Assembly (NCBI GenBank): GCA_018335585.1
Contig: JAGXRZ010000063.1
Span: 1 to 57,981, forward strand
DNA: 57,981 nucleotides
Direction: 5' to 3'
Source of the DNA: Selenomonadales bacterium
GTDB lineage: Bacteria; Bacillota; UBA994
Shown: in pieces, positions 402 through 27,992 of the stretch
Layout of the letters: every line of letters begins with the position of its first letter
Numbering within the stretch: position 1 is the stretch's first letter
Position numbers and translations under genes: made by a program
The notes under the pieces: model-generated
Database searches by the model: none
What the model was told of the DNA's origin: nothing
What the model saw: only the letters and a program-made list of their open reading frames with translations

Positions 402-1019
402 TACTCACGCACGCGTGCCCGGTTTGATCACGACCCGGTGGTCGAGGCTGAGGCTATCTTGGCTAGGTACGTTGACAAGCCGCCGGTCCGATTCGGGAGA
501 GGTCGAGCTTTCTATTCGCCGAGCGAAGACTATATCAGCTTGCCGCCTATAGGCGACTTCCCGGTGGTGGCCGAATACTACGCCACTCTCTTCCACGAGC
601 TAGCGCACAGCACGGGTCATGGTTCGCGGCTGAATCGTCCGAGTGTTGCCGAGCCGGGGAAGGCGGCTTTCGGGTCGGAGCTCTATGGCAAGGAGGAGTT
701 GGTGGCGGAGCTGGCGGCGGCCTTCCTAATGGCGGATGCGGGGATGGATCGGGAGATAAAAAATAGGGCTTCGTATATTGGCGGCTGGCTTGGCGCAATA
801 AAGCAGGACGTTCGCCTGATAGTGTCTGCAGCAGCTCTGGCGACGAAAGCCACAGAGTATATTCAAGGGCAACGGAATCCTGAACGAGATGCGGACAGGG
901 ACGGGGAAGGGTTTGAGCCGCCGGAGGCAGTCGTACATGTGGCTGAGGAGTGCGGGACGCAGACTTCTACGGTAGCTCTGCCGGCAAAGAAGAGGGGCCG
1001 GAGCTCGGTAGACCGATAA
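402..1019 (+). pseudogene. ArdC-type antirestriction protein, C-terminal zinc-metallopeptidase part, 5' truncated
   Basis: The open frame (usable GTG at 438; a stop at 399) encodes the C-terminal domain of ArdC-like proteins: a DYISLPP strand, then HELAHSTGH, the HExxH-type zinc motif, followed by KEELVAELAAAFL and YIGGWL. ArdC proteins of plasmids and conjugative elements protect incoming DNA from restriction, and normally have an N-terminal ssDNA-binding domain to reach about 300 residues. That domain is missing here, with the IS21 end only about 25 bp upstream, so I infer the insertion removed the 5' half. Whether a truncated peptidase is still made from GTG 438 is unclear. Confidence 0.72.
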
Positions 1020-2358: not shown

Positions 2359-2886
2359 GTGCACAGGTTAGAAGTTGGTGGCTTATTCTTCCCTACTCAA
2401 ACCAAAATGCAGGAGGGGGCATACCTCGAATACACCGAATCGGGGCCGATGCTGTTGTTGGCGGTTGGCAACCCGTCTGCTAAGGAAGTTGAAGCCGCAA
2501 GACAGGGCCCTCTTCGCTTTGCGCTTTATGAGACGGATGTGCTGCTGTGGTTCTTGTATCACATTGAAGGTTTTGGTTCGTGGTCGGACTGCCCCTTCTC
2601 GATTCGCTTGTATGACGGTCAGGGTAAGCGCTTTGACTGGTCGGAGGAAGTAGTCGAGGGGACAGGCCTTGCGCTTAGCATAGTATTGGTGGACGCTCAG
2701 ACTGGGATTGTCAGGGCACTGCGCCTAGTCGCTCTGCCCACGGTCTTTTCTCGCGAGTTCAGGGCCGCGATTCTTCGTCAACTGGAGCGACCGTTTTCGG
2801 CGGAGGCTTACTACAGGCATATTGATCAGACCTATCGTATGTATAGCACAGATGCCTTGGTGCAGCGAGCGCAGTTCAGATCATAG
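2359..2886 (+). CDS. Hypothetical protein, 175 aa, upstream partner of AcrVA2-like gene
   Basis: No family is recognised. The GTG at 2359 has AAAGG (2346-2350) eight bases upstream. The protein is soluble, mixed alpha/beta, with hydrophobic strands (GPMLLLAVGNPS, DVLLWFLYHI, LALSIVLVDAQTG) and a helical C-terminus ending AYYRHIDQTYRMYSTDALVQ. It ends 43 bp before the AcrVA2-like gene on the same strand, so they are probably co-transcribed. A fold resembling phage or plasmid regulatory or inhibitor proteins is possible but I see no motif for it. No helix-turn-helix of an Aca-type regulator is obvious. Confidence 0.65.
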   Translation: MHRLEVGGLFFPTQTKMQEGAYLEYTESGPMLLLAVGNPSAKEVEAARQGPLRFALYETDVLLWFLYHIEGFGSWSDCPFSIRLYDGQGKRFDWSEEVVEGTGLALSIVLVDAQTGIVRALRLVALPTVFSREFRAAILRQLERPFSAEAYYRHIDQTYRMYSTDALVQRAQFRS

Positions 2887-2929: not shown

Positions 2930-3943
2930 GTGGCCGAAAGAACGTCAGCCCTTAAACCGAAACTGCTCCTCGCTGAGATGTCTCGCAGGATGCCTACTGT
3001 CTGGGAGCAGATCAAGTACTTCCGCAAAGGAAAAGGGAAAGAACTTCCCGACTGGCCAGAGTGGTGCTACTTGCCCGTCGCTGGCGGGTATGCTATTGCC
3101 ACTGCCGGGGGGCCGCCTAATGCCAATCTATTCGACCCACTGTTAAGCCCCGCATCTATCACGGCGCTTGCCGCATGGCGTGTTTCGCAGGGCGTATACC
3201 GCTTCGATGCTGACTTGTTCAACTCATTGGTTGCTCAGCCCCTTGAAAGCCGACTGCCCTGTGAGGCGTTTAAGCGATTACCGGAGTGGTGTGTGTACAT
3301 CGAAACATATGGCCTGCCTTTCTTGGATGTGCGCACAGAGGGCTTTTTCGCTCACCTTGAATGGGATGCTAACGACGGCAGGATTGAGCTCCGCCTGCTT
3401 ATAGTGCCTGAGGAGCGACCAAATATCGCTCTCGCGCTGCATCTAGGCGACTGGACGCTCGAAGAGGGCATGCGGAGGATGCGGGTTGAGGCAGAGAAAC
3501 ATGCTGGCGCCTTCCCGCAGTTCGAGAAGACGCATGCAGATGCGATAGTCCCATTGTTGCAGCTGCTACTGTACCTCTGCGCCGACAACGCCGATATGCC
3601 AGTCAGACCCGAGCACCCATCCACCCGTACCCGGATGAGCGGTCAGGTTGATGTGCCGAGGGATGTGCGTCTCTGGACGGTTGGCGAGCGTATCGGAGCT
3701 GGCATCCGCAGGTACCGCAACGAGCATGCACAACAGCAGGATGACGGCGCTGAGTCTGCTATGCGAAAGGACGGCTTCCGCCACGGGCCGCGGCCTCATG
3801 TCAGGCGGGCGCACTGGCACCATTTCTGGACGGGGCCAAAAACAGGCGAGCGTAAGCTAGTGCTACGTTGGCTGCCGCCGATCCCCGTTAAATATAATGA
3901 GGTCGACGGCCCGGTGGTTATCCATAAGGTTCAGCGGGATTAA
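2930..3943 (+). CDS. AcrVA2-family anti-CRISPR-like protein
   Basis: The 337-residue product matches my recollection of AcrVA2 of Moraxella bovoculi (about 322 aa) at many positions: WRVSQGVYRFD (83-93), LPEWCVYIE (117-125), the helix PLLQLLLYLC (208-217), VGERIGAGIRRYR (251-263) and the C-terminal block RPHVRRAHWHHFWTG (288-302) followed by RKLVLRWLPPIPV (308-320). AcrVA2 blocks type V-A CRISPR immunity by recognising nascent Cas12a and causing loss of its mRNA. Start: GTG 2930 with GGAGGGG at 2916-2922; a TTG at 2927 is equally possible. No cas gene is in the window, so the target is unknown. The gene sits between two unknown genes in a likely operon. Broader AcrVA2-like proteins exist on plasmids and may have other targets. 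Confidence 0.78.
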   Translation: MAERTSALKPKLLLAEMSRRMPTVWEQIKYFRKGKGKELPDWPEWCYLPVAGGYAIATAGGPPNANLFDPLLSPASITALAAWRVSQGVYRFDADLFNSLVAQPLESRLPCEAFKRLPEWCVYIETYGLPFLDVRTEGFFAHLEWDANDGRIELRLLIVPEERPNIALALHLGDWTLEEGMRRMRVEAEKHAGAFPQFEKTHADAIVPLLQLLLYLCADNADMPVRPEHPSTRTRMSGQVDVPRDVRLWTVGERIGAGIRRYRNEHAQQQDDGAESAMRKDGFRHGPRPHVRRAHWHHFWTGPKTGERKLVLRWLPPIPVKYNEVDGPVVIHKVQRD

Positions 3944-3973: not shown

Positions 3974-5515
3974 GTGATAGAAAACGGAACAGCAGATTCA
4001 CGGAGAGAGCTAGTTCGGGTGGATGTCGACCTCACACCGTTCTTGGCGGAGGCCCTAGCAACCAACAAGAGGGTTCGTAAAGAGATAGATGCTCTTTACC
4101 AGCAGGATAGGTTGCGTTACTTTGAACTCGCAAAGAATAGCCCATGGTACACTCACGTGATAGTAACATCGGCCAGCCTAACGACCGAAATGTACGCTAG
4201 GCGGGCATTAGGACTTCTCGCGGGGATGGATGCTCCGCAGTTAACCGCGTTATTTCGCAAGGGGTGGCCGCGGGTCGCTAAGGCTGTATTTCGTGCGCCA
4301 GTCGTTAGTGCTACGATCGTCTCAGATGCGATTCCTGCTGCGGAGCGAGAACTGTTGAATGACGATGAATTTAACGGCTGTGCTGTCGTTGTGTTGGCGC
4401 TCGGTCAGCTGCTGGGCAAGCCTATGGCCACCGACTCCATAACCTCAGGTCTCATTCAAATACTACACGGGCGCCTTAAGCATGCGGCGGGCGAACGACG
4501 TTTTGACTACGGTCAGCTTAGCGGTAAAGAGCGACAGGCGGCGAAGCGCGTTGCTAAAGACGTGCGGCGAAAAGCGGGGATCTCGCCTCGGCTGGGGGCC
4601 CGCATTCTATACGAGATGGATGATCGTCTAGCCGTGACATGGAGAGACGCCTTCGAGTTCCTTTTCGATGGCGAGGGCGTGGCGGAGGCTATTCTGGATG
4701 ATGCTTTATTAGACGAGGACGGCCTAGACGAAATAGCGGCCATCTATAACATGTGTTTCACCGCGGATTCTTTAGGGTTGGCGGCTTCGGGTGAGAATGC
4801 TCGTCTTGTGGAGTTTACGGTGGCCGCGATCTACATAAAGCGGTTGGTGATGGCCTATAAGCAAGTGAAGCAGACGTTTTGGGCTAATACCGCAGAAGTG
4901 CTCTACCCTGAACTGAACAGCCTCACTCAAGATGTCTCAATGCTGAGGGAAGAACATGCGCGATTGGTACAGGAAAACGTCGCCCTACGGGAGCAAAACG
5001 TGCATCTGCAGAAACTCGCGTACTCTGAGTATGACCGTGCTCGGGCTGAGAGCAGAGACGCTATTTATCAACTGGGTGCGGAAATGGGCCAGTTAAAGGC
5101 GCAGGTTGAGGCCGATCGGCGGGAAATGGCTGCCTTGCGCGAGCTGTTCTTTGATCTCTCCACAGAGACCAATGTCGTAGCCATGTCTCCCGAAACAGAC
5201 CCGGCGCCCTATCTGGCTAAGTTGCGAGGGGTGAGGGGCCTTATTGCCGGCGGCCACGAACGGTGGCAACAGCGGATTAAGACGCTTCTGCCGCACTTCA
5301 CGTTCATACATACTGATGTCCTGAACTTCGACCCGCAGCTCTTCGCGGGGGCAGACGTTGTGTTTGTCCACTCCGGCTATGTCTCGCACGGGTTCTACTA
5401 TAAAGTGATGAGTGCGTTGCGTTCTTTCCCCGATGTTGCTTTGCACTATCTTCACGGTACTAACTCTCTGCGCACCTTGAAGGAGATGAGTGCGGCGGTT
5501 GGTGAGTTGCCATAA
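3974..5515 (+). CDS. Coiled-coil protein with C-terminal DUF2325 domain, 513 aa
   Basis: GTG start at 3974 after AAAGGGGTGGG (3959-3969). Residues 1-300 are mostly helical and unrecognised; 315-395 form a coiled coil (LTQDVSMLREEHARLVQENV and on); about 410-510 is DUF2325: LRGVRGLIAGGHERW, TDVLNFDPQLFAGADVV, VHSGYVSHGFYYKV and ALHYLHGTNSLRTL, a Rossmann-like fold recurrent in poorly studied Bacillota proteins. Function is unknown. It lies 30 bp after the AcrVA2-like gene and 26 bp before an AbiEi-like antitoxin. Degenerate copies of its 3' end occur near 12.2 and 17.9 kb, so it belongs to a repeatedly duplicated module. Confidence 0.7.
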   Translation: MIENGTADSRRELVRVDVDLTPFLAEALATNKRVRKEIDALYQQDRLRYFELAKNSPWYTHVIVTSASLTTEMYARRALGLLAGMDAPQLTALFRKGWPRVAKAVFRAPVVSATIVSDAIPAAERELLNDDEFNGCAVVVLALGQLLGKPMATDSITSGLIQILHGRLKHAAGERRFDYGQLSGKERQAAKRVAKDVRRKAGISPRLGARILYEMDDRLAVTWRDAFEFLFDGEGVAEAILDDALLDEDGLDEIAAIYNMCFTADSLGLAASGENARLVEFTVAAIYIKRLVMAYKQVKQTFWANTAEVLYPELNSLTQDVSMLREEHARLVQENVALREQNVHLQKLAYSEYDRARAESRDAIYQLGAEMGQLKAQVEADRREMAALRELFFDLSTETNVVAMSPETDPAPYLAKLRGVRGLIAGGHERWQQRIKTLLPHFTFIHTDVLNFDPQLFAGADVVFVHSGYVSHGFYYKVMSALRSFPDVALHYLHGTNSLRTLKEMSAAVGELP

Positions 5516-5541: not shown

Positions 5542-5979
5542 GTGGAAACCGTCGGCAGTGGAAATTACCTGTCAAACAGAGAGTGGTTTAGAGATGCGTT
5601 AAGGGGACAAAACGTTATCCTATGTTACACATCTGCCCTAGAGTGCCACCAGCTCTTTCTTGGCTACCTAAACGAAAGTCAGATTGATGTTTATGCCTTG
5701 GACAAGGGAGAGTACTCAAACATCAATTACCATGTTGTTGAGAGTTTTGAGGGGATAGAGACCGTTCGCTTTGACGACTTGGTTTGCACCTCAGTAAACC
5801 AGACGGTCAATGACATGCTTGCCGACTTCGATAACATTGATGAACAATCGCTTATAGAGGCGTTGTGGTACTACTATGTAACGCATAACAAGAGCTTCGA
5901 CGGGCTAGATATTTCCCCACAGAATATGGCGCGCTTCGGCTCTATAAAGGACTGGGCTGTTGGGTACAAGGAGGAGTGA
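5542..5979 (+). CDS. AbiEi-like antitoxin (type IV toxin-antitoxin), 145 aa
   Basis: GTG start at 5542 with GAGGGGGCGGGG upstream. The protein contains LCYTSALECHQLFLGYLNE, a hydrophobic strand and an INQT/VNQTVNDML segment, reminiscent of AbiEi-type antitoxins, but it is shorter than classical AbiEi (about 200+ aa) and lacks an obvious winged helix. The assignment rests mainly on its overlap (TGATG) with the AbiEii nucleotidyltransferase gene, the typical antitoxin-toxin order. A paralogue at 19699 shares roughly 60 percent of residues by eye. It would neutralise the downstream toxin and possibly autorepress the pair. Confidence 0.6.
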   Translation: METVGSGNYLSNREWFRDALRGQNVILCYTSALECHQLFLGYLNESQIDVYALDKGEYSNINYHVVESFEGIETVRFDDLVCTSVNQTVNDMLADFDNIDEQSLIEALWYYYVTHNKSFDGLDISPQNMARFGSIKDWAVGYKEE

Positions 5980-6758
5980 TGATGACGGAGCGCGAAGCAG
6001 TGCTGTACCAGATGATGGGGGCATTCTATAAGGCGGGTCTTCCGTTAGTGTTTAAGGGCGCTTTGGTTGTTAAGGCAATTATGAGTGAACGCGGCTTTAA
6101 TTTACTTGAGAGAGAAACGCATGACATTGATGCTAACTGGGTCAGCAACCCGCCTGCAATGGATACGTTGGTTTCAGCGATCAATCAAGTGCTGCATGAC
6201 GAGATGAGTAGTTTTAAGGTCGCTTCCATCCAGGACTATACAGAAATGCAATCCGCGTGCTTAGGGGTGACTGATACAGAGACCAACGTCCGTTATGCCA
6301 CCATAGACATTAAGGTCAAACCCGGCACCAAGCACGCTGTTTACTGTGTTAATGACGTTAAGTTTGAGGGAGTCATGGTTAACGAAATCTTAGCTGACAA
6401 AATTTCGGTGCTTTCAGGCAACAAGATCTTTAGGCGTGCAAAGGATTTTATAGACGTCTATGCCTTGTCTCATTGTGTTGAAATAAAGGTGTCAGACATT
6501 ATCGATACTTGTGGAAAGGAAGGACGCACTTTATCGCCCTTTAGCGAGTTTTTAAACCGCAAGACAGAGCTTGAACATGCCTATAACAGGTTGCAGCGCA
6601 TAAGGGGTAAGCCCACTTTTGAGGAAATCTACTCATACATGGCAAGTTTTCTGCGGGCATTTATAGAACGATCCTCAGAGGACTTAGTGTGGAATAGCCG
6701 GGATCATGCTTGGGCCAAAGGCGATAGACATCCAAAGAAGCGAGCGGCAGATCGCTAG
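5979..6758 (+). CDS. abiEii: AbiEii/AbiGii-family nucleotidyltransferase toxin
   Basis: The product carries the DNA polymerase beta-like nucleotidyltransferase signature of AbiEii toxins: LVFKGALVVKAIM (KGxxx motif near residue 25), RETHDIDANW (the metal-binding DxD, near 48) and RRAKDFIDVYALS (near 153). AbiEii toxins transfer nucleotides to tRNA acceptor ends and arrest growth, and AbiE systems abort phage infection. Start choice: ATG 5979 overlaps the antitoxin stop, ATG 5982 has better spacing from AAGGAGG (5968-5974), and GTG 5976 is too close. Length of about 259 aa is slightly short for the family but all core motifs are present. It is followed by the remains of a fic gene. Confidence 0.72.
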   Translation: MMTEREAVLYQMMGAFYKAGLPLVFKGALVVKAIMSERGFNLLERETHDIDANWVSNPPAMDTLVSAINQVLHDEMSSFKVASIQDYTEMQSACLGVTDTETNVRYATIDIKVKPGTKHAVYCVNDVKFEGVMVNEILADKISVLSGNKIFRRAKDFIDVYALSHCVEIKVSDIIDTCGKEGRTLSPFSEFLNRKTELEHAYNRLQRIRGKPTFEEIYSYMASFLRAFIERSSEDLVWNSRDHAWAKGDRHPKKRAADR

Positions 6759-7099: not shown

Positions 7100-7490
7100 A
7101 GAACACAAGAAATACCCCATCTCTTAAGATGGGGTATTCCATTTATGGGGCCGTGCGATTAGCCTGTCCCAAACCGACGGCGCCATTCGCGGTCAATGGG
7201 GGTAAGGAGAAATGTTCTGCGCTGCAACTTGGCCAAGCTTGCTTTTCGGTTAACACAACCTTATAATCTGTCTAGAATGAATTAGCTGAATCTTGACCCA
7301 AACATTTTTGCGGGGTCACCCTTTACTGAAAGTCTTTGAGGAAGTAACGGTGCTTGGTAGCGCCTAAGTAACTGGTAGTTGCTACAGAGTAGCCTTCTGA
7401 AAATCATCTAACGGAAAGGTGGTGATTGTTTTCCTAGTGCTCAGGAAGATCACAAAGACGTAATACGTGATTACAAGGAGGAACAAGCTA
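7100..7490. other. Gene-free stretch between fic remnant and S8 protease
   Basis: Holds a perfect hairpin at 7111-7138 directly after the point where fic homology ends, and then the leader of the protease gene with AAGGAGG at 7475-7481. Nothing else coding is convincing. Confidence 0.5.
7111..7138. repeat. Perfect 12-bp stem-loop at the fic breakpoint
   Basis: AATACCCCATCT (7111-7122), loop CTTA, AGATGGGGTATT (7127-7138). Such hairpins resemble the sub-terminal hairpins of IS200/IS605-type elements or MITEs and also can terminate transcription. Its position 12 bp after the fic truncation suggests an insertion or deletion scar. Confidence 0.6.
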
Positions 7491-8684
7491 ATGATTACGA
7501 AATTGCAGGTCAAGGCTATCGCGGTGTCTATGGTGCTAGTGTTAGTTCTAGGTCTCATTGGATCCGCAGGGGTCTCGCCACAAGTGGAAGCATTATCGAC
7601 GACGGACTTTGCCCTAGGCCAAATTCTCGTCGGGTTCCGTCCAGGGACTCCCGCACTTGATGTTGCCTCGGTACATGCGTCCAACAACGGACAAGTGCGC
7701 GAGGTTATTGACAGGATCGGTGTCCAAGTGGTGCGTGTGCCCGCAGGAGACGAACTCCGCGCGGTGGCCAGATATAGGTCTAACCCCAATGTGCTTTTCG
7801 CGGAAGTGGACGGCATTGTACATGCTCTAGGTTTTACGCCTAACGATCCGATGTTGCCTAATCAATGGGGTCTTTCTAGGGTGGAAGCTACATTGGCCTG
7901 GGGTGTAACCCGCAGTAATTCCACGATACGGATAGCTATTCTCGACACGGGGATTGACGCAAATCACGGCGATATCAGCCCTAAGGTGGTTGCCGCGCGG
8001 AATTTCTCCACCAGTAACACGGTAAACGACCGGAATGGTCACGGCACCCACGTAGCTGGCATTGCTGCTGCTGTCACGAACAACCTCAGGGGCATCGCAG
8101 GGCTAGGATTCGACTCGGTGCTGATGAACGGCAAAGTGCTTGGGGATAACGGCAGCGGAACGTGGTCATCTGTCGCCAATGGCATCATCTGGGCAGCAGA
8201 TAACGGCGCGCGCGTCATCAATCTGAGTCTTGGCGGCACAAGTCACTCTACTACGCTCGAAAATGCAGTAAATCATGCGTGGGGGCGGGGAGCAGTCATA
8301 GTGGCTGCCGCAGGCAATAGCAATACCAGCACCCTTACATATCCGGCTGCCTATGCCAACGTTATTGCCGTAGGCGCTACAGACCAGAATGATGCCCGTG
8401 CATCCTTCTCTAACTTTGGCACTTGGGTCGATGTAGCAGCCCCCGGCGTAGATATCCTGTCCACAACTCCTCGCGTCGGAAGAACTGACCAGTATGCCAC
8501 AAAAAGCGGTACTTCAATGGCTGCACCTTTTGTCGCTGGATTAGCAGGACTGGTTTGGACTACCGGATGGGGCACGAGTAACACTGCGGTGCGCGACCGA
8601 ATCCAAGCGACGGTTGATCCGATTGTTACCGACCAGCCTATTGGCGGTCGTATCAATGCAGCTCGTGCGGTGGGAGCAAGGTAG
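7491..8684 (+). CDS. Secreted subtilisin-like S8 serine protease (thermitase type)
   Basis: ATG 7491 has AAGGAGG at 7475-7481. A signal peptide covers residues 1-35 (hydrophobic [19 protein letters not shown]). An I9/fervidolysin-like propeptide follows ([15 protein letters not shown]... VQVVRVPAG). The catalytic triad is visible: Asp in [11 protein letters not shown], His in [13 protein letters not shown] and Ser in [13 protein letters not shown], with oxyanion Asn in VAAAGNSN. At 397 residues there is no C-terminal extension. It is an exported protease probably used for extracellular protein breakdown or maturation. It is followed one base later by a small gene. Confidence 0.9.
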
Positions 8685-9015: not shown

Positions 9016-9175
9016 GCCTAGGCATAGTGGGCAGGGCTACGGGCGACACTGAGCAACCTAGTTGGTCCGCCTAAAGGGGGTGAGCATCTTCTGTACAAAA
9101 TCTGGCTAACTCGTCTGTCTAATAAACTGTCGACAAATGCTAGGCAATTGAAAGTAAGCAGAAGGAGTTGTGATC

Positions 9176-10825
9176 ATGTCACGTAAATTATTGGCTATCT
9201 TATTAACCGTAGTTTGCATTTTTTCGTTGGTAGTCACATCAGGCGCCAAAGTTCACATCGTTGAAGAGGATGTCCCCTTCTACGGCGATCTCGATGGCAA
9301 CAAACTTTCAGACGATCTTGATGACGCACTTGCTAAGACAAAGCCTGGGGAAAAAATATCCGTTATTGTTGTTCTCGACAGAGCCCCTCAGGACGAAGTA
9401 TTGCACGACCTCTCGCTCGGTGCTGCTGAACTGAAGGGTCGCTGGGAACATGCCATTCAAGGCTTTGCGGTGGAAATGACACCGGGGCGCATTAGAGCCA
9501 TGGCCAGACATCCTTTTATTCAAAGAATTGACTTGGAGCGCACATACCATGCTCTCGGCTTGGGATCTGCCACAACGTGGACCGGTGTTCAAGCTGCACG
9601 TAGTACATATGCTGTGTGCGGCGATCGCGATGGCAATCGGCTTACCTATTCCAGAAATGATGTCGTGATTGCCATTCTTGATACCGGTATCCATGCGGGT
9701 CATGTTGACCTAGACGGTGGCAAGGTCATCGGCTGGTTCGATGCCATCAATGGCCGGACAACGGCTTACGATGATCAAGGCCATGGAACGCATGTGGCCG
9801 GAATTGCCGCCGGCACGGGAGAGGGCAACAACGTTGACATAGGTGTCGCGCCTGGTGCCGCGCTGGTCGGAATTAAGGTGCTTAATCAGCATGGGTCTGG
9901 TACCACAACGCAGATTATTAACGGCGTCAATTGGATGATTAACAACAGAACCACTTTTAATATTCGTATCGGCAACATGAGCCTAGGTTCTTCTGGTTCG
10001 TCAGACGGAACCGACAGCTTATCTCAAGCCGTAAACAATGCGGTCAACAACGGCATTACCATGGTTGTCGCGGCAGGCAATTCAGGTCCTGCAGTTCGCA
10101 CAATAGGTTCCCCGGCTGCAGCCGCTAATGCGATTACAGTGGGTGCTCTCCATGCCCCGGGCGACAGAGGGTGGGCACTGGCAGCCTTCTCTAGCAGAGG
10201 ACCCACAGCAGACAATCGTATTAAGCCAAACATCACCGCACCTGGCGCTAACATCAATGCTCCCTCTCACACAAGCTCGACAGGGTATGTTAGCCAGAGT
10301 GGCACTTCCATGGCCGCTCCCTTTATCGCGGGAGTCATAGGGCTCATGCTTGACGCCAACAACTCTTTGACTGACAGCGGTATAAAAAATATTCTCTACG
10401 CACCCGGCAACCTGAGAGACTTCGGACCGTCTGGTATGGATAACGACTTTGGCTCGGGTACCACCCTTCCCTTTAACGCTATCCGACAAGCGGGAGGATT
10501 TACCTCAGGGAGCTTTTCCGATAATCTGTCTATTGGTTTCGGATCCGGTACACTCTCTGGCACTGGCGCAACGCAAAACCATACCTTTAGCGTGACAGCC
10601 ACAACTGCGCCGATTGCTATCACGTTTATCCACTCAAATTGGTCTACCTCCGTCGACTTTGATATACGCTTGCTCAATCCAAGCGGGACGGTGGTGGCCT
10701 CCTCTACCGGTACCAATCGTCAAGAAACCATTCGGTTTCAGCCTAGTGTAACCGGTACCTATACCCTGAGAGTAAACTCGCATGCAGGGTCTGGCGGGTA
10801 TTGGTTTAATGTGAGTCGGCGGTAG
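9176..10825 (+). CDS. Secreted S8 serine protease with C-terminal PPC-like domain
   Basis: ATG 9176 with GAAGGAG at 9161-9167 (the GTG at 9170 is too close). Residues 1-24 form a signal peptide; an I9-like propeptide occupies about 45-120 (ISVIVVLDRAP... IQGFAVEMTPGRIRAMARHP). The catalytic domain shows Asp ([11 protein letters not shown]), His ([13 protein letters not shown]), Asn (VVAAGNSG) and Ser ([13 protein letters not shown]). The last ~110 residues form a beta-sandwich resembling bacterial pre-peptidase C-terminal domains (VDFDIRLLNPSGTVVAS, GTYTLRVNS). The 549-aa protein is distinct from its neighbour at 7491, so this is a second, independent secreted protease. Confidence 0.88.
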   Translation: MSRKLLAILLTVVCIFSLVVTSGAKVHIVEEDVPFYGDLDGNKLSDDLDDALAKTKPGEKISVIVVLDRAPQDEVLHDLSLGAAELKGRWEHAIQGFAVEMTPGRIRAMARHPFIQRIDLERTYHALGLGSATTWTGVQAARSTYAVCGDRDGNRLTYSRNDVVIAILDTGIHAGHVDLDGGKVIGWFDAINGRTTAYDDQGHGTHVAGIAAGTGEGNNVDIGVAPGAALVGIKVLNQHGSGTTTQIINGVNWMINNRTTFNIRIGNMSLGSSGSSDGTDSLSQAVNNAVNNGITMVVAAGNSGPAVRTIGSPAAAANAITVGALHAPGDRGWALAAFSSRGPTADNRIKPNITAPGANINAPSHTSSTGYVSQSGTSMAAPFIAGVIGLMLDANNSLTDSGIKNILYAPGNLRDFGPSGMDNDFGSGTTLPFNAIRQAGGFTSGSFSDNLSIGFGSGTLSGTGATQNHTFSVTATTAPIAITFIHSNWSTSVDFDIRLLNPSGTVVASSTGTNRQETIRFQPSVTGTYTLRVNSHAGSGGYWFNVSRR

Positions 10826-12066: not shown

Positions 12067-12163
12067 ATTGCTACTGGGATCAACATATATACCCCTTTAG
12101 ATTGCTGCCTGCCTGCATAATGTCAGAGGTGAGCCTTAGGAGTTTTAGAGTGGCAATTAGGTA

Positions 12164-12285
12164 CTGCTTCTACTACTAAGTGATGAACGCATTGCGTTCG
12201 CCCCCGCCGTTGCTCTAAACCATCTCCACGACACAAATCGTTTACGCATCTTGAAGGAGATTAGCACTGCTGTTGACGAATTGTA
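12164..12285 (+). pseudogene. Relic of DUF2325 gene 3' end
   Basis: The stretch parallels the end of the gene at 3974-5515: TTCTACTACTAAGTGATGAA, then GCATTGCGTTCG, then CATCTCCACGACACAAAT, TTGAAGGAGATTAGCACTGC and a stop TAG at 12283. In translation it reads VMNALRS... NHLHDTNRLRILKEISTAVDEL against VMSALRS... LHYLHGTNSLRTLKEMSAAVGEL. Frameshifts and an internal stop show it is dead. Confidence 0.75.
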
Positions 12286-19698: not shown

Positions 19699-20205
19699 GT
19701 GCTTAAGGTTCTTGGCGAGCACTCGCCCTCGCAGCTAAGCGAAGGAGCAAGTAGAGGTAGGCAGGTAGCCACGGCTTGCAGTGGCAATTACGCAACGCAT
19801 AGAGCATGGCTGCTAGATGTGTTGCGGGGTGAAAACGTTGTTTTGTGCCGCACTTCTGCTTTGGAGTGTCATGGGTTATTCCCTGGCTACCTTAACGAAA
19901 AACAAATTGATGTGTATTCCTTGGATCGAGGGAAGTACGAGAACATCAACTACTTTGTCGTCGATACGTTCGATGGGATTGAGGTTGTCCACTTTGGCGG
20001 CATAGCCTGCACGTCAATCAATCAAACGATTAATGACATGCTGGCTGATTATGACAACATTGATGAGCAATCGTTTATTGAGGGGCTAGGCTCTTACTAC
20101 TTTATGAACGGTGAAAGTTTTGAGGGGCTGGACATTGAGCCACGGAACATGGAGCGATTCAACGCCGTCAAGGATTGGGCTATTGGCTACTGGGATGAAG
20201 ATTGA
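19699..20205 (+). CDS. Paralogue of the AbiEi-like antitoxin
   Basis: Residues from about 28 on (SGNYATHRAWLLDVLRGENV, RTSALECHGLFPGYLNEKQI) align over the full length with the protein at 5542 (SGNYLSNREWFRDALRGQNV, YTSALECHQLFLGYLNESQI). The position matching the 5542 GTG start is GTA (about 19762), so the start here must be elsewhere; GTG 19699 is possible, giving 27 extra residues. Its AbiEii partner is missing: the next gene, 30 bp on, is fic. Either the antitoxin has a new partner or it is an orphan left by rearrangement. Confidence 0.62.
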   Translation: MLKVLGEHSPSQLSEGASRGRQVATACSGNYATHRAWLLDVLRGENVVLCRTSALECHGLFPGYLNEKQIDVYSLDRGKYENINYFVVDTFDGIEVVHFGGIACTSINQTINDMLADYDNIDEQSFIEGLGSYYFMNGESFEGLDIEPRNMERFNAVKDWAIGYWDED

Positions 20206-23027: not shown

Positions 23028-25412
23028 ATGGGGGGGCATGCTTCGGTTGATATTACCCCAAAACCGCGAATTCTGAGGACGCTAGGAGATATTCCGTTTC
23101 AGCCGTGGCAATGCCTAGCGGAGTTGATTGATAACTCGATCGACGCATTTCTCGCGAGCGAGGCAAGTGGGGAAAATGGCAAAGAGCAGAGAATTGTGGT
23201 CAACTGGTCGAATGACTCTGTCGGAACGGGTGACCGCACGGTGGAGGTTTCGGACAATGCGTGCGGGATGACCCTAGAACAACTACAGAACGCAGTGACT
23301 GCGGGATATACCAGTAATGACCCCATAAACCATTTGGGGCTCTTCGGCATGGGCTTCAACATAGCGACCGCGCGCCTCGGCGAGGTGACTACTATAAGGT
23401 CGACCTGCGCCGGTGATACCCAGTGGGTCGAGCTGACTATTGACTTTGGTGAGTTGATCAAGGCAAGGCGCTTTCTCGCTCCTGTTAGGATGCTGCCAAA
23501 AGACAATCCACTTGAGTCAGGGACAAAGATAATCATCTCCCAGCTGAAAGCCGGTATCTCTGATACCATGATTGCTAAGGAGAGCGATATCAGAAGGCAA
23601 TTGGAGTCAATCTATACCCCATTACTCACGACGAAGGATATAATGGTGCTAGTTAAGGGGCGGCAGCTGTCGCCCCGGAACCATTGCGTCTGGTCGGATG
23701 CCCGCTATGTGGTTCACAATCAAGCGAATGTCCCAGCAAGGGTGGACATTGACCGTGATCTAGGACACTCCCTATTCGATACCGAGAAGAATTGCTATCT
23801 CACAGAGGATGAGGCTGAGCCGTATTACACTGCTCAGTCGACCGGCGAGACCCTCCCCGGGAACATTGTGGAGCGAAACAAGCGCCTTACCGGTTGGCTG
23901 GGCATTCAACGTTACGCCGATCCGAACGATTACGGCATCGATTTTGTCCGTAACGGGCGCAAAATAAGGATTGCAGACAAGTCCCTCTTCTTCTACGACA
24001 ATCCCTTTACTGGAGCGAAAGAACTTCAATACCCTGTTGAGCTCGGATCAACTATCGGTGGCCGTATCGTGGGTGAGCTGCATGTGGATTACTTACTGCC
24101 GGTCTATCAAAAGAACGACTTTAACAAAGAGGATACTTCATGGGCTCAGACGGTCGAGGCGATTTGTGGGGTGGGTCCGTTCCTGCCTCAAAGGCGTAAA
24201 GCATTGGGTTTTCCTCCGGAGGTTACTTCACCGTTGGGAGTGCTGGCAAATGCCTATCGCCGTGTCGACTCTGGAACGAAGTGTTTATTTGCGCCGAATG
24301 ACAAGGCGAAAGAATACGCTGGATATTTTCGGAGCGGACGACGTGAGTATATTGATGATAGCCTTTGGTGGAAAGCCGCCCAAGAGGAAGACCAGAAACG
24401 TAGTACCGGGGGAACGAGGTTGACAACAGCGGTGAATCCAGGCGACGCGCCCTCCGACGATCCTAGTTCATACCTTCGGGGGAGTATGGGTTCAACTATC
24501 GGAAGCGGCAGCACACCTTCGATACCTACGGTGCCAAGTCCTCCTCTAGTGCCAGTGGTGACATCGCCTGCAATGGCGACATCTAAGCTTGATGAGCTTA
24601 TTCGTAACTCTGCCCAAGTTGGGCAGCTAACTGGGAAATATAGCTTCGGCAGAGCAGCCCCACTAAATGTTCGGGCTTATGAGCTGAAGATCGGCACAGA
24701 AATTCTCGCAAACGGTGAGCGCAAGCCCTGCTTCTTTTCATCAAGCGGCATTGACTGCACTTTTGTTTACGACCCGGCGCATCCCGTCTTAGCACAGTTC
24801 CCAATCAGCCCAAAGGAGCTGCTGCTCCAATATCTAGCCGAGAAGCTAAAGGCCCGAGACAACCTTGCTGATGTGGTTGAGGTGTTCTCTACCCTCGTTC
24901 AGAACACAATGCCAGAGGCGAAGATTGACCGACAGTCATTACAGGATCGGGCGGCGAAGGCCTTTGCCACGTTGCGGGAAAAGATGGTCGATGCACTGAG
25001 ACCGCAGGCTATTAGCGTACTGCAGTGTATACATGAGTCCACTGGCGACGTGGAGGACACCGTAAATCGGATGCTCTTCAACCCAGCGCTGATTCAACGC
25101 TTCCAGACATGTCAGGAGAGCGGATATGATGCGTTGGAGTACGTGCCGGAAAAAGCCCTCTTGCGCCTCGTTGACAGGTTCCCCGAACGGGTTTTCGATG
25201 GCAAGGTGGTCACTGCTCCATACACAAGTATTAGTTTCTCGGATGAGAAAGCTACGGAGCGGAGCCGTAATGAGTCAAAAGAGCGTGTTATGTCGTTCTT
25301 AAAGGACGCACTTCGGGTGATGGCAAATACAGGTTTTGGGCAGCGTGACTTGAAGAACGAGCTGTCTCGCGCCTCGCTGAGCATCGACTTTCTGTTGGGG
25401 GAGTTGGTGTGA
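23028..25412 (+). CDS. MORC-like GHKL (HSP90-type) ATPase, 794 aa
   Basis: Begins 3 bp after the methyltransferase stop, with AGAGAGGTG upstream. The Bergerat ATP-binding fold is clear: N box ELIDNSIDAF (32-41), G1 DNACGM (76-81) and G2 GLFGMGFN (104-111), then an S5-like domain with the conserved Lys region (LLPVYQKNDFNKEDTSW). A Pro/Ser/Thr-rich linker (about 480-530) separates a helical C-terminal domain. MORC-type ATPases in bacteria occur in restriction-modification-like operons and are thought to clamp or loop DNA. It overlaps the next gene by one base. Confidence 0.85.
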   Translation: MGGHASVDITPKPRILRTLGDIPFQPWQCLAELIDNSIDAFLASEASGENGKEQRIVVNWSNDSVGTGDRTVEVSDNACGMTLEQLQNAVTAGYTSNDPINHLGLFGMGFNIATARLGEVTTIRSTCAGDTQWVELTIDFGELIKARRFLAPVRMLPKDNPLESGTKIIISQLKAGISDTMIAKESDIRRQLESIYTPLLTTKDIMVLVKGRQLSPRNHCVWSDARYVVHNQANVPARVDIDRDLGHSLFDTEKNCYLTEDEAEPYYTAQSTGETLPGNIVERNKRLTGWLGIQRYADPNDYGIDFVRNGRKIRIADKSLFFYDNPFTGAKELQYPVELGSTIGGRIVGELHVDYLLPVYQKNDFNKEDTSWAQTVEAICGVGPFLPQRRKALGFPPEVTSPLGVLANAYRRVDSGTKCLFAPNDKAKEYAGYFRSGRREYIDDSLWWKAAQEEDQKRSTGGTRLTTAVNPGDAPSDDPSSYLRGSMGSTIGSGSTPSIPTVPSPPLVPVVTSPAMATSKLDELIRNSAQVGQLTGKYSFGRAAPLNVRAYELKIGTEILANGERKPCFFSSSGIDCTFVYDPAHPVLAQFPISPKELLLQYLAEKLKARDNLADVVEVFSTLVQNTMPEAKIDRQSLQDRAAKAFATLREKMVDALRPQAISVLQCIHESTGDVEDTVNRMLFNPALIQRFQTCQESGYDALEYVPEKALLRLVDRFPERVFDGKVVTAPYTSISFSDEKATERSRNESKERVMSFLKDALRVMANTGFGQRDLKNELSRASLSIDFLLGELV

Positions 25413-27070
25413 TGAACTTCTATACGCAAGACATTTCCGAAGGGAACAACTGGAAAGGCCTTGTACGTGCGGTAGCGAGAATGATGGCACATATCGGATG
25501 GAAAGACACTGCCGTTATTGACGGCTCTGGAGATATGGGGGCAGACTTATTGGCGATGCGCGACGAGGGGGGAAAGGTTCTTTCCTGGGTCGTTCAGTCA
25601 AAAGCGGTGGCGGGAGACAGATACATTGGGCCAAGTGCAATGCAGGAGGCGGTGACCGCCTTGTCCTTTTATGGGGCAGAAATAGCGGCCGTCGCTACTA
25701 ATGGCGAATTCACGCACACTGCCAAGGTTCGGCAAAAACAACTGGAGACGCATGGCTATAGGCTGAAGCTTTGGAATGGGGCATTTATCAAGAATGTGAT
25801 TGACCAAATGCCAAACGAAAGTGCAGCCCTCAGAGAGCTTCGACCCTATCAAGAAGGAATCGTCAACAAAGTAATAAAGGCTTTTGACGAAGGCGGTAAG
25901 AAGGCGTTTTATATTGTCGCTACTGGCCTAGGCAAAACAGTGATTGCAGCGACCATCACGCAGCAATTGTGGGAGCGCGGGTGTCGTCGCATTCTGGTGC
26001 TTTGCCATCAGACAGACTTGGCGCAACAACTTGAACAGGGCTTCTGGCCGCAGCTTACGAAAGAGGTTCCCACATCCGTCTTCTTTGACGGGATACCTCC
26101 TAAGAATACAGAGGGAGTTGCTTTCGGTCTATATCAAAGCCTGTACGGCTACCTACCGGGCATCGAAGAAAGCCGATTTGATGCTGTAATAGTTGACGAG
26201 GCACACCACGCGATGGCGTATGGGTTTAGGGCCTGCCTTGACCATTTGAAGCCGAGGTTTCTTATTGGAATGACTGCTACGCCCTGGCGGGGAGACGGGC
26301 AGAACCTCAACACTGTCTTTGGCGAACCGCTAGCCAAGGTCTCCTTAGTTGACGGCATGGCGATGGGGTATTTGTCAAAAGTGGACTACCGTATCCTCTG
26401 CGATAATGTGGACTGGGACGGCATGCTAAGTATCAGCAAACAGAAGCTCTCCATTAAGGACTTAAATAAGCGCCTCTTTCTCCCTCAGCGCGACGAAGCC
26501 GTTATCGCTGAAATTCAAAACATCGTCAATACGGTGCCGACCCCACGAATTGCAGTATTCTCTCCTTCGATTGAACACAGCAACCGTTTCGCAGCGATGC
26601 TATCAGCCGCCGGAGTCCCGACCGCCGCCTTGTCTATCACGGACAAAGCGGAGCGGCGCAAACGGCTCCTCGGTTTTTCGGCTGGAAATTATAGTGCGGT
26701 CACGGCAGTCGATGTGATGAACGAAGGCATTGACATACCGGATGTGAATATCCTCGTGTTCCTGAGGGCTACGCATTCAAGGCGCATATTTGTACAGCAG
26801 CTTGGGCGTGGGCTACGGCTTTCGGAGGGGAAGGACAAGGTTATCGTTTTGGACTTCGTCTCCGATATCCGAAGGATGGCGGAAATGGTCGGGATGAATA
26901 ACGAGGGCAAAGAAAAAGGGCGAGAAAAAGAGATTTTGTTCTTAGAGCAAGGTTTTGTTTCCTTCTCCGATGCTAGGGTGGAGCGCTTTGTGAATATATG
27001 GATTGAGGACATGGCTGATCTCAGTGGTTCTGATGACGAGGTCAAGCTTACGTTCCCGGAGGGGTTCTAA
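25412..27070 (+). CDS. Mrr-like restriction endonuclease fused to SF2 helicase
   Basis: ATG 25412 overlaps the ATPase stop (TGATG), with GGGGGAG upstream. Residues 10-135 form an Mrr-type PD-(D/E)xK nuclease: GDMGADLLA (Asp45) and WVVQSKAV (Q62-S-K64), where Gln replaces the acidic residue as is common in Mrr enzymes. Residues 140-490 are an SF2 helicase: Walker A ATGLGKT (170-176), VIVDEAHHAM (DEAH 262-265), GMTATPWRGDG and QQLGRGLRLSEGK (motif VI). A single chain therefore can translocate on and cut DNA, probably guided by the methylation state. Confidence 0.88.
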   Translation: MNFYTQDISEGNNWKGLVRAVARMMAHIGWKDTAVIDGSGDMGADLLAMRDEGGKVLSWVVQSKAVAGDRYIGPSAMQEAVTALSFYGAEIAAVATNGEFTHTAKVRQKQLETHGYRLKLWNGAFIKNVIDQMPNESAALRELRPYQEGIVNKVIKAFDEGGKKAFYIVATGLGKTVIAATITQQLWERGCRRILVLCHQTDLAQQLEQGFWPQLTKEVPTSVFFDGIPPKNTEGVAFGLYQSLYGYLPGIEESRFDAVIVDEAHHAMAYGFRACLDHLKPRFLIGMTATPWRGDGQNLNTVFGEPLAKVSLVDGMAMGYLSKVDYRILCDNVDWDGMLSISKQKLSIKDLNKRLFLPQRDEAVIAEIQNIVNTVPTPRIAVFSPSIEHSNRFAAMLSAAGVPTAALSITDKAERRKRLLGFSAGNYSAVTAVDVMNEGIDIPDVNILVFLRATHSRRIFVQQLGRGLRLSEGKDKVIVLDFVSDIRRMAEMVGMNNEGKEKGREKEILFLEQGFVSFSDARVERFVNIWIEDMADLSGSDDEVKLTFPEGF

Positions 27071-27642: not shown

Positions 27643-27992
27643 TGTCGGGATGCGCCTTCAAACCACGATCAATCGAACAGGCATGTGTCGGCATCCTGCA
27701 ACTGTCTGAGATGGAACAAGAGATAGATCCAGCCCCACCGCTTGACTGGAGGGATCGTCCGGTAAAGCATCGCCGTTGAAACCCACACACTCCCTTGCAG
27801 AGAGAGAGCCCGCAGTATGCCCACCGCCTGGGATCGGATTAAGCATTTGCACAACGGAAAGAGGCAGAAACCTACAGGCCAGCCGGGCTGGTGCTACATG
27901 GGGTGCCTCCTAACATCCCTTCTGGGTGACTGGACTCACCCAGAAGGGCTGCACGAACGCAGGTTGAGCGAGAAAAGCATGCCTGTGCCGTC
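27643..27992. other. Gene-free stretch; possible degenerate coding relic and hairpin
   Basis: Minus-strand frames between 27658 and 27854 stay open for about 60 codons in two frames but lack ribosome binding sites and recognisable similarity; they may be a relic. The strong hairpin at 27917-27948 is the only clear element. Confidence 0.4.
27917..27948 (-). terminator. Perfect 13-bp stem-loop, likely end of nuclease transcript
   Basis: CCCTTCTGGGTGA (27917-27929), loop CTGGAC, TCACCCAGAAGGG (27936-27948). It lies 45 bp beyond the stop of the minus-strand nuclease gene; no U-tract is obvious on either side. Confidence 0.5.

What the first reader, a model, noticed from the sequence alone, without database searches (positions are those of the whole stretch)
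2930..3943. AcrVA2-family anti-CRISPR homologue in a Bacillota mobile region
Five separated blocks match AcrVA2 as I recall it, including WCVYIE, VGERIGAGIRRYR and the C-terminal RPHVRRAHWH...RWLPPIPV. AcrVA2 depletes Cas12a mRNA through nascent-chain recognition. Finding it in a Clostridia-like genome beside ardC and abiE implies Cas12a-bearing hosts in its range, or another target.
Basis: partly seen in the sequence, partly recalled or inferred. Interest (0 to 1): 0.85.

Follow-up and report, generated by a model that had tools for sequence, protein, structure and literature searches.

The report
AcrVA2/FinQ-family mRNA-silencing protein
The gene is a genuine distant relative of the anti-CRISPR protein AcrVA2, but the same family also contains FinQ, a plasmid protein that shuts off a rival plasmid's transfer genes, and its bacterium and relatives show no Cas12a, so it more likely silences some other, still unknown, gene.

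Summary
The ORF at 2930-3943 (+) is homologous to AcrVA2: phmmer E 7e-18 to PDB 7ci1, phrog_6160 E 6e-59, and a predicted fold matching 7ci2 at Z 22.7 over 284 residues, with nothing else above Z 3. The step to Cas12a is not supported. There is no Cas12a in its own genome, in 14 other genomes of its class, or in 50 other genomes that carry the family; the search does find Cas12a elsewhere in the phylum. The resident CRISPR is a type I-E system with 91 repeats. The family is broad and rare, spread through phages and plasmids of many phyla. It includes FinQ of IncI plasmids, which itself matches AcrVA2 (E 3.5e-16) and switches off F transfer genes. No paper in the searched library mentions both names. 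The gene sits 43 bases after a phrog_12389 gene. That pairing recurs in Leptospira phages and Vibrio and is fused into one ORF in a Myxococcota contig, suggesting a functional partner. Most likely this is a nascent-chain-triggered mRNA silencer aimed at something other than Cas12a. Homology is shown; mechanism and target are inferred.

The parts
2930..3943 (+). AcrVA2/FinQ-family protein, 337 aa from GTG 2930 (338 aa from TTG 2927)
   Evidence: phmmer to PDB 7ci1 E 7.3e-18; phrog_6160 E 6e-59; model vs 7ci2 Z 22.7
3791..3889 (+). C-terminal signature RPHVRRAHWH...RWLPPIPV, residues 289-321 (numbered from TTG 2927); H291, R293, R294, H296, W297, H298, G303, W315 shared by AcrVA2, FinQ and this protein
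   Evidence: 109-member alignment; many members were fetched by this motif, so its frequency is inflated
2359..2886 (+). phrog_12389-family protein, 175 aa, probable functional partner; ends 43 bases before the family gene
   Evidence: phrog_12389 E 8e-36; adjacent in Leptospira phage LbrZ_5399 and Vibrio hepatarius, fused in Myxococcota locus L120
2298..2326 (+). sigma-70-like promoter TTGAAA-17-TATACT, 10 of 12 consensus positions
   Evidence: consensus match only, number of such sites close to shuffled expectation
3974..5515 (+). 513-aa protein, phrog_11092, coiled coil with a weak DUF2325-like C-terminus; same strand, 30 bases downstream
   Evidence: phrog_11092 E 2e-50; next to the AcrVA2-family gene only in this window
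5542..5979 (+). AbiEi-like antitoxin
   Evidence: PADLOC AbiEi E 1e-6
5976..6758 (+). AbiEii-like nucleotidyltransferase toxin
   Evidence: PF08843 E 6e-6; PADLOC E 1e-9
438..1019 (+). C-terminal part of an ArdC-like antirestriction protein (zincin domain); N-terminal part missing
   Evidence: PF18818 E 2e-34; matches positions 177-309 of 324 in phrog_7245

Best explanation
The gene encodes a member of a broad AcrVA2/FinQ family carried by phages and plasmids. It most likely works as AcrVA2 is reported to: it binds a specific nascent peptide on the translating ribosome and causes loss of the mRNA being translated. Members differ in the peptide they recognise: Cas12a for AcrVA2, probably an F-plasmid transfer protein for FinQ. 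This member probably silences a gene of a rival mobile element, or a host defence other than Cas12a. It is probably co-expressed with a phrog_12389 partner. Shown: homology, fold, FinQ-AcrVA2 homology, mobile distribution, absence of Cas12a where searched, and the recurrent partner. Inferred: mechanism, target and the partner's role.
For: Sequence and fold match AcrVA2 only. FinQ matches AcrVA2 independently (E 3.5e-16), and the protein in L038 is annotated with the same accession, WP_275542888.1, as FinQ of plasmid R621a. FinQ is reported to stop tra transcription at multiple sites (PMC8744291). AcrVA2 is reported to trigger cas12a mRNA loss through a nascent N-terminal peptide (PMC13131331). 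Both are gene-silencing phenotypes, which fits one shared mechanism. W84, R85, Y91, P119, W121, Y124, G139, L215, C218, G253, R261, H291, R293, R294, H296, W297 and H298 are shared by the window protein, FinQ and an AcrVA2 orthologue. The family is in 582 plasmids (534 typed conjugative) and 68 phage records. Two phages carry it between lysis genes and integrase, a usual place for cargo genes. No Cas12a in 50 family-bearing genomes.
Against: No mechanism was tested. Similarity to AcrVA2 is low (about a quarter of residues or fewer identical), so the mechanism could have changed. FinQ's effect was described as rho-independent transcription termination, not mRNA decay. No target peptide can be predicted, and the peptide-contact residues could not be examined because no coordinates were at hand.
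Confidence: 0.5

Rival explanations
1. It is a true anti-CRISPR against Cas12a, kept because its mobile element visits Cas12a-bearing Bacillota.
For: Homology and fold; full-length Cas12a is present in 2 of 398 genomes sampled from the phylum.
Against: No Cas12a in own genome or class, nor in 50 family-bearing genomes across many phyla. Not grouped with AcrVA2 in the quick tree. FinQ shows the family has other targets.
Confidence: 0.1
2. It is an anti-CRISPR against the resident type I-E system, recognising a nascent Cascade or Cas3 peptide.
For: The genome carries cas3, cse1, cse2, cas6e, cas7e, cas5e and cas1e with 91 repeats. A Shewanella phage with an AcrVA2 homologue was also discussed alongside a type I-E system in a Shewanella genome (PMC10846135).
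Against: No spacer of the array matches the window or any fetched locus, so there is no self-targeting sign. Type I-E is common, so co-occurrence is weak evidence.
Confidence: 0.12
3. It regulates its own element, for example by limiting expression of its own transfer or toxin genes, with phrog_12389 as co-factor.
For: Probable operon with phrog_12389, phrog_11092 and AbiE genes on one strand with short gaps.
Against: The one plasmid member with a reported phenotype, FinQ, acts on a different plasmid; phrog_11092 next to a family member was seen only here.
Confidence: 0.15

Closest known systems
AcrVA2 (Moraxella bovoculi; PDB 7ci1, 7ci2)
   Same: Whole-length fold (Z 22.7) and C-terminal RPHxRRxHWH...RW motif; family carried by mobile elements
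   Different: Distant in sequence (17-18% identity in the structural alignment; 23% to its Moraxella phage orthologue); not grouped with AcrVA2 in a quick tree; no Cas12a in host or class; preceded by a phrog_12389 gene
FinQ (IncI plasmid fertility inhibitor, R621a)
   Same: Homologous (27% identity, E 9e-20) with the same conserved residues
   Different: FinQ lies beside trbA in the conjugation region of IncI plasmids and silences F tra genes; here the neighbours are phrog_12389, phrog_11092, AbiE and an ArdC fragment
phrog_6160 (phage proteins of unknown function)
   Same: Full-length match, E 6e-59
   Different: No function assigned; this window gene is in a bacterial contig near a truncated ardC

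Membership tests
AcrVA2/FinQ family (by descent) | Significant sequence similarity to AcrVA2 | tested here: met
   phmmer to 7ci1, E 7.3e-18
AcrVA2/FinQ family (by descent) | Same fold over the whole chain | tested here: met
   7ci2 Z 22.7, 284 aligned, 3.6 A; next unrelated chain Z 2.9
AcrVA2/FinQ family (by descent) | C-terminal RPHxRRxHWH...RW motif | tested here: met
   Residues 289-315
AcrVA2 (functional anti-Cas12a) | Inhibits Cas12a and depletes its mRNA | not testable with these tools
   Needs an experiment
AcrVA2 (functional anti-Cas12a) | Recognises the LSKT nascent N-terminus of Cas12a | not testable with these tools
   No complex prediction or binding assay available
AcrVA2 (functional anti-Cas12a) | Host or close relatives carry type V-A | tested here: not met
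   0 of 15 genomes of the class including its own; control positive in 2 of 398 of the phylum; own genome 96% complete
AcrVA2 (functional anti-Cas12a) | Groups with AcrVA2 in a tree | tested here: inconclusive
   Groups with L001 and L002 (support 98); AcrVA2 is a long branch elsewhere, quick tree only
FinQ (fertility inhibition) | Sequence homology to FinQ | tested here: met
   tblastn 27%, E 9e-20
FinQ (fertility inhibition) | Represses transfer genes of a co-resident plasmid | not testable with these tools
   Needs mating and RNA assays
FinQ (fertility inhibition) | Lies in a conjugative plasmid transfer region | tested here: inconclusive
   No transfer gene among the seven neighbours scanned within the first 7 kb; the contig ends 2.9 kb upstream of the gene

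The most novel reading that the evidence does not exclude
AcrVA2 and FinQ are two faces of one widespread phage and plasmid family of retargetable nascent-chain-triggered mRNA silencers, most of which target something other than CRISPR; some, including this one, act with a dedicated phrog_12389 partner that is fused to them in at least one lineage.
Probability: 0.4. Interest if true: 0.8.

Novelty: new member of a known kind. Interest (0 to 1): 0.5.

Why it matters
AcrVA2 is described as the first documented prokaryotic case of translation-dependent mRNA degradation used against CRISPR (PMC13131331). If FinQ and its many relatives share the mechanism, it would be a general weapon in conflicts between mobile elements rather than a CRISPR curiosity, and it would give a directly testable new explanation for FinQ's decades-old 'termination at many sites' in the F tra operon. 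The phrog_12389 partner is a concrete lead to how such proteins act.

Tried and rejected
phrog_11092 as a conserved partner: rejected, next to a family member only in this window. Homology between the partner and the AcrVA2 family: none found by profile comparison. Known fold for the phrog_12389 protein: no useful match from a good model (pLDDT 85.5; best Z 3.2). Viral-contig searches with the two neighbours found no relatives, and the partner alignment was too diverse to search with. Self-targeting spacers as a sign of an active anti-CRISPR: none of 89 spacers matches the window or a fetched locus; the whole genome could not be tested. The first Cas12a search had no positive control, so it was repeated phylum-wide. 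The original AcrVA2 and FinQ papers are not held; their content is taken from reviews. The careful tree did not finish; only the quick tree was used.

Full report
What is there. The ORF at 2930-3943 (+) encodes a 337-residue protein with a good ribosome-binding site before the GTG at 2930. It matches the unnamed phage family phrog_6160 over its whole length at E 6e-59; Pfam, NCBIfam and PADLOC have no model for it. A model built from the protein and 23 viral-contig relatives (pLDDT 82.7) matches AcrVA2 and nothing else: Z 22.7, 284 residues, 3.6 A, the next unrelated chain at Z 2.9. Chance is excluded.

The family is much wider than AcrVA2. Relatives occur in 68 phage records (Lactobacillus, Leptospira, Erwinia jumbo phages, Pasteurella, Moraxella, Shewanella and others), in 582 plasmid records, 534 of them typed conjugative, in 31 viral contigs and in genomes of many phyla (80 loci kept of 155). 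It is rare within a lineage: 1 of 15 genomes in the window's class and 4 of 398 sampled from its phylum, as expected of mobile cargo. A tyrosine integrase lies within about 5 kb in 23 of 123 loci by a rough profile count. In phage JCL1032 and in contig L002, one of the two closest relatives, the gene sits between lysis genes and integrase. The other closest relative, L001, lies by terminase genes.

FinQ is a member. Most of the plasmid hits are enterobacterial, and nearly all those listed for Escherichia and Shigella are annotated FinQ. The FinQ protein in L038 carries the same accession, WP_275542888.1, as FinQ of R621a, the plasmid whose FinQ Getino and colleagues used as reference. FinQ itself finds AcrVA2 in the PDB at E 3.5e-16. 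A Moraxella phage protein is a close AcrVA2 orthologue (E 2.6e-128). A core of residues is common to the window protein, FinQ and the AcrVA2 orthologue, including W84, R85, Y91, P119, W121, Y124, G139, L215, C218, G253, R261 and the H291, R293, R294, H296, W297, H298 cluster. The C-terminal frequencies are inflated because many loci were fetched with that motif. No paper in the searched open library mentions both FinQ and AcrVA2, or FinQ and anti-CRISPR; subscription papers and preprints were not searched, so priority cannot be claimed.

Cas12a is probably not the target. The Cas12a model TIGR04330 finds two full-length genes among 398 genomes of the phylum, so the search works, yet none in the window's genome, in the other 14 genomes of its class, or in 50 genomes that carry the family. 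The genome is 96% complete. Its resident CRISPR is type I-E, with cas3, cse1, cse2, cas6e, cas7e, cas5e and cas1e and a 91-repeat array. None of 89 spacers matches the window or any other fetched locus. In a quick tree the protein groups with two phage-contig proteins at support 98, while AcrVA2 and FinQ are long branches elsewhere whose joining may be an artefact.

A recurrent partner. The gene 43 bases upstream is a phrog_12389 protein (E 8e-36). A relative lies directly upstream, on the same strand, of the family gene in Leptospira phage LbrZ_5399, close by in a second Leptospira phage, directly downstream in Vibrio hepatarius (L095), and within about 2 kb in L084 and L063. In Myxococcota locus L120 the two are one continuous ORF, partner first, then the AcrVA2-like domain, running off the contig end; an assembly error cannot be excluded. 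Outside these cases phrog_12389 occurs alone: 12 other phylum genomes have it with no family member within about 1.5 kb, and in the five plasmid loci examined no family member was found within about 4 kb. In 50 family-bearing genomes 7 have phrog_12389, 4 of them at the family locus. The partner is therefore optional. Its predicted fold (pLDDT 85.5) has no clear relative among solved structures, and no relation to AcrVA2 itself was found.

Local setting. A promoter-like site precedes the pair, and phrog_12389, the family gene, phrog_11092, abiEi and abiEii follow on one strand with short gaps. The ardC ORF upstream lacks its N-terminal part, and the contig begins with a reversed transposase-type helix-turn-helix protein, best match IS66 TnpA at E 4e-8, below cut-off. 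This is mobile-element debris, but no complete element could be delimited.

How it most likely works. AcrVA2 is reported to recognise the nascent N-terminus of Cas12a and trigger loss of the mRNA during translation (PMC13131331). FinQ is reported to end transcription of the F tra operon at many sites (PMC8744291). Inference: both are target-specific silencing, and mRNA lost during translation could look like termination at many places, so one mechanism with changed peptide specificity is the simplest account. On that account the window protein silences an unknown gene of a rival element or a non-Cas12a defence. Homology and distribution are shown; mechanism, target and the partner's role are inferred. 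I put 0.5 on the mechanism with a non-Cas12a target, 0.1 on true anti-Cas12a, 0.12 on anti-type I-E and 0.15 on self-regulation.

Noticed in passing
window 27796-27900 (+): Short stretch (MPTAWDRIKHLHNGKRQKPTGQPGWCYMG) resembling residues 15-49 of the AcrVA2-family protein (40% identity, E 1.9e-4): possible remnant of a second family gene, near an ORF with helicase-like motifs at 25409-27070.
   Followed up: partly
window 19765-20199 (+) and 12156-12283 (+): A second AbiEi-like ORF, 64% identical to that at 5542-5979, and a fragment of the C-terminus of the phrog_11092 protein: repeated arrival or duplication of the same cargo on this contig.
   Followed up: no
L140 (own genome, C53:10000-29900): Type I-E CRISPR-Cas operon with a 91-repeat array of about 89 spacers; repeat GAAACACCCCCACCCGCGTGGGGAAGAC.
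   Followed up: yes
L019 6004-6990 (+) and 8120-9070 (-); L075; L102: Loci with two AcrVA2-family genes close together, as might be expected if different copies carry different specificities.
   Followed up: no
window 7467-8684 and 9170-10825 (+): Two S8 (subtilisin-like) peptidase genes in a row (the first judged by sequence only); the second has weak similarity to several S8 families, including the anti-phage peptidase IteS, all below cut-off.
   Followed up: no
L095 7111-7845 (+): A NYN-domain (predicted RNase) protein with an OST-HTH/LOTUS domain lies just downstream of the family gene and its phrog_12389 partner in Vibrio hepatarius: a possible RNA-degrading neighbour.
   Followed up: no
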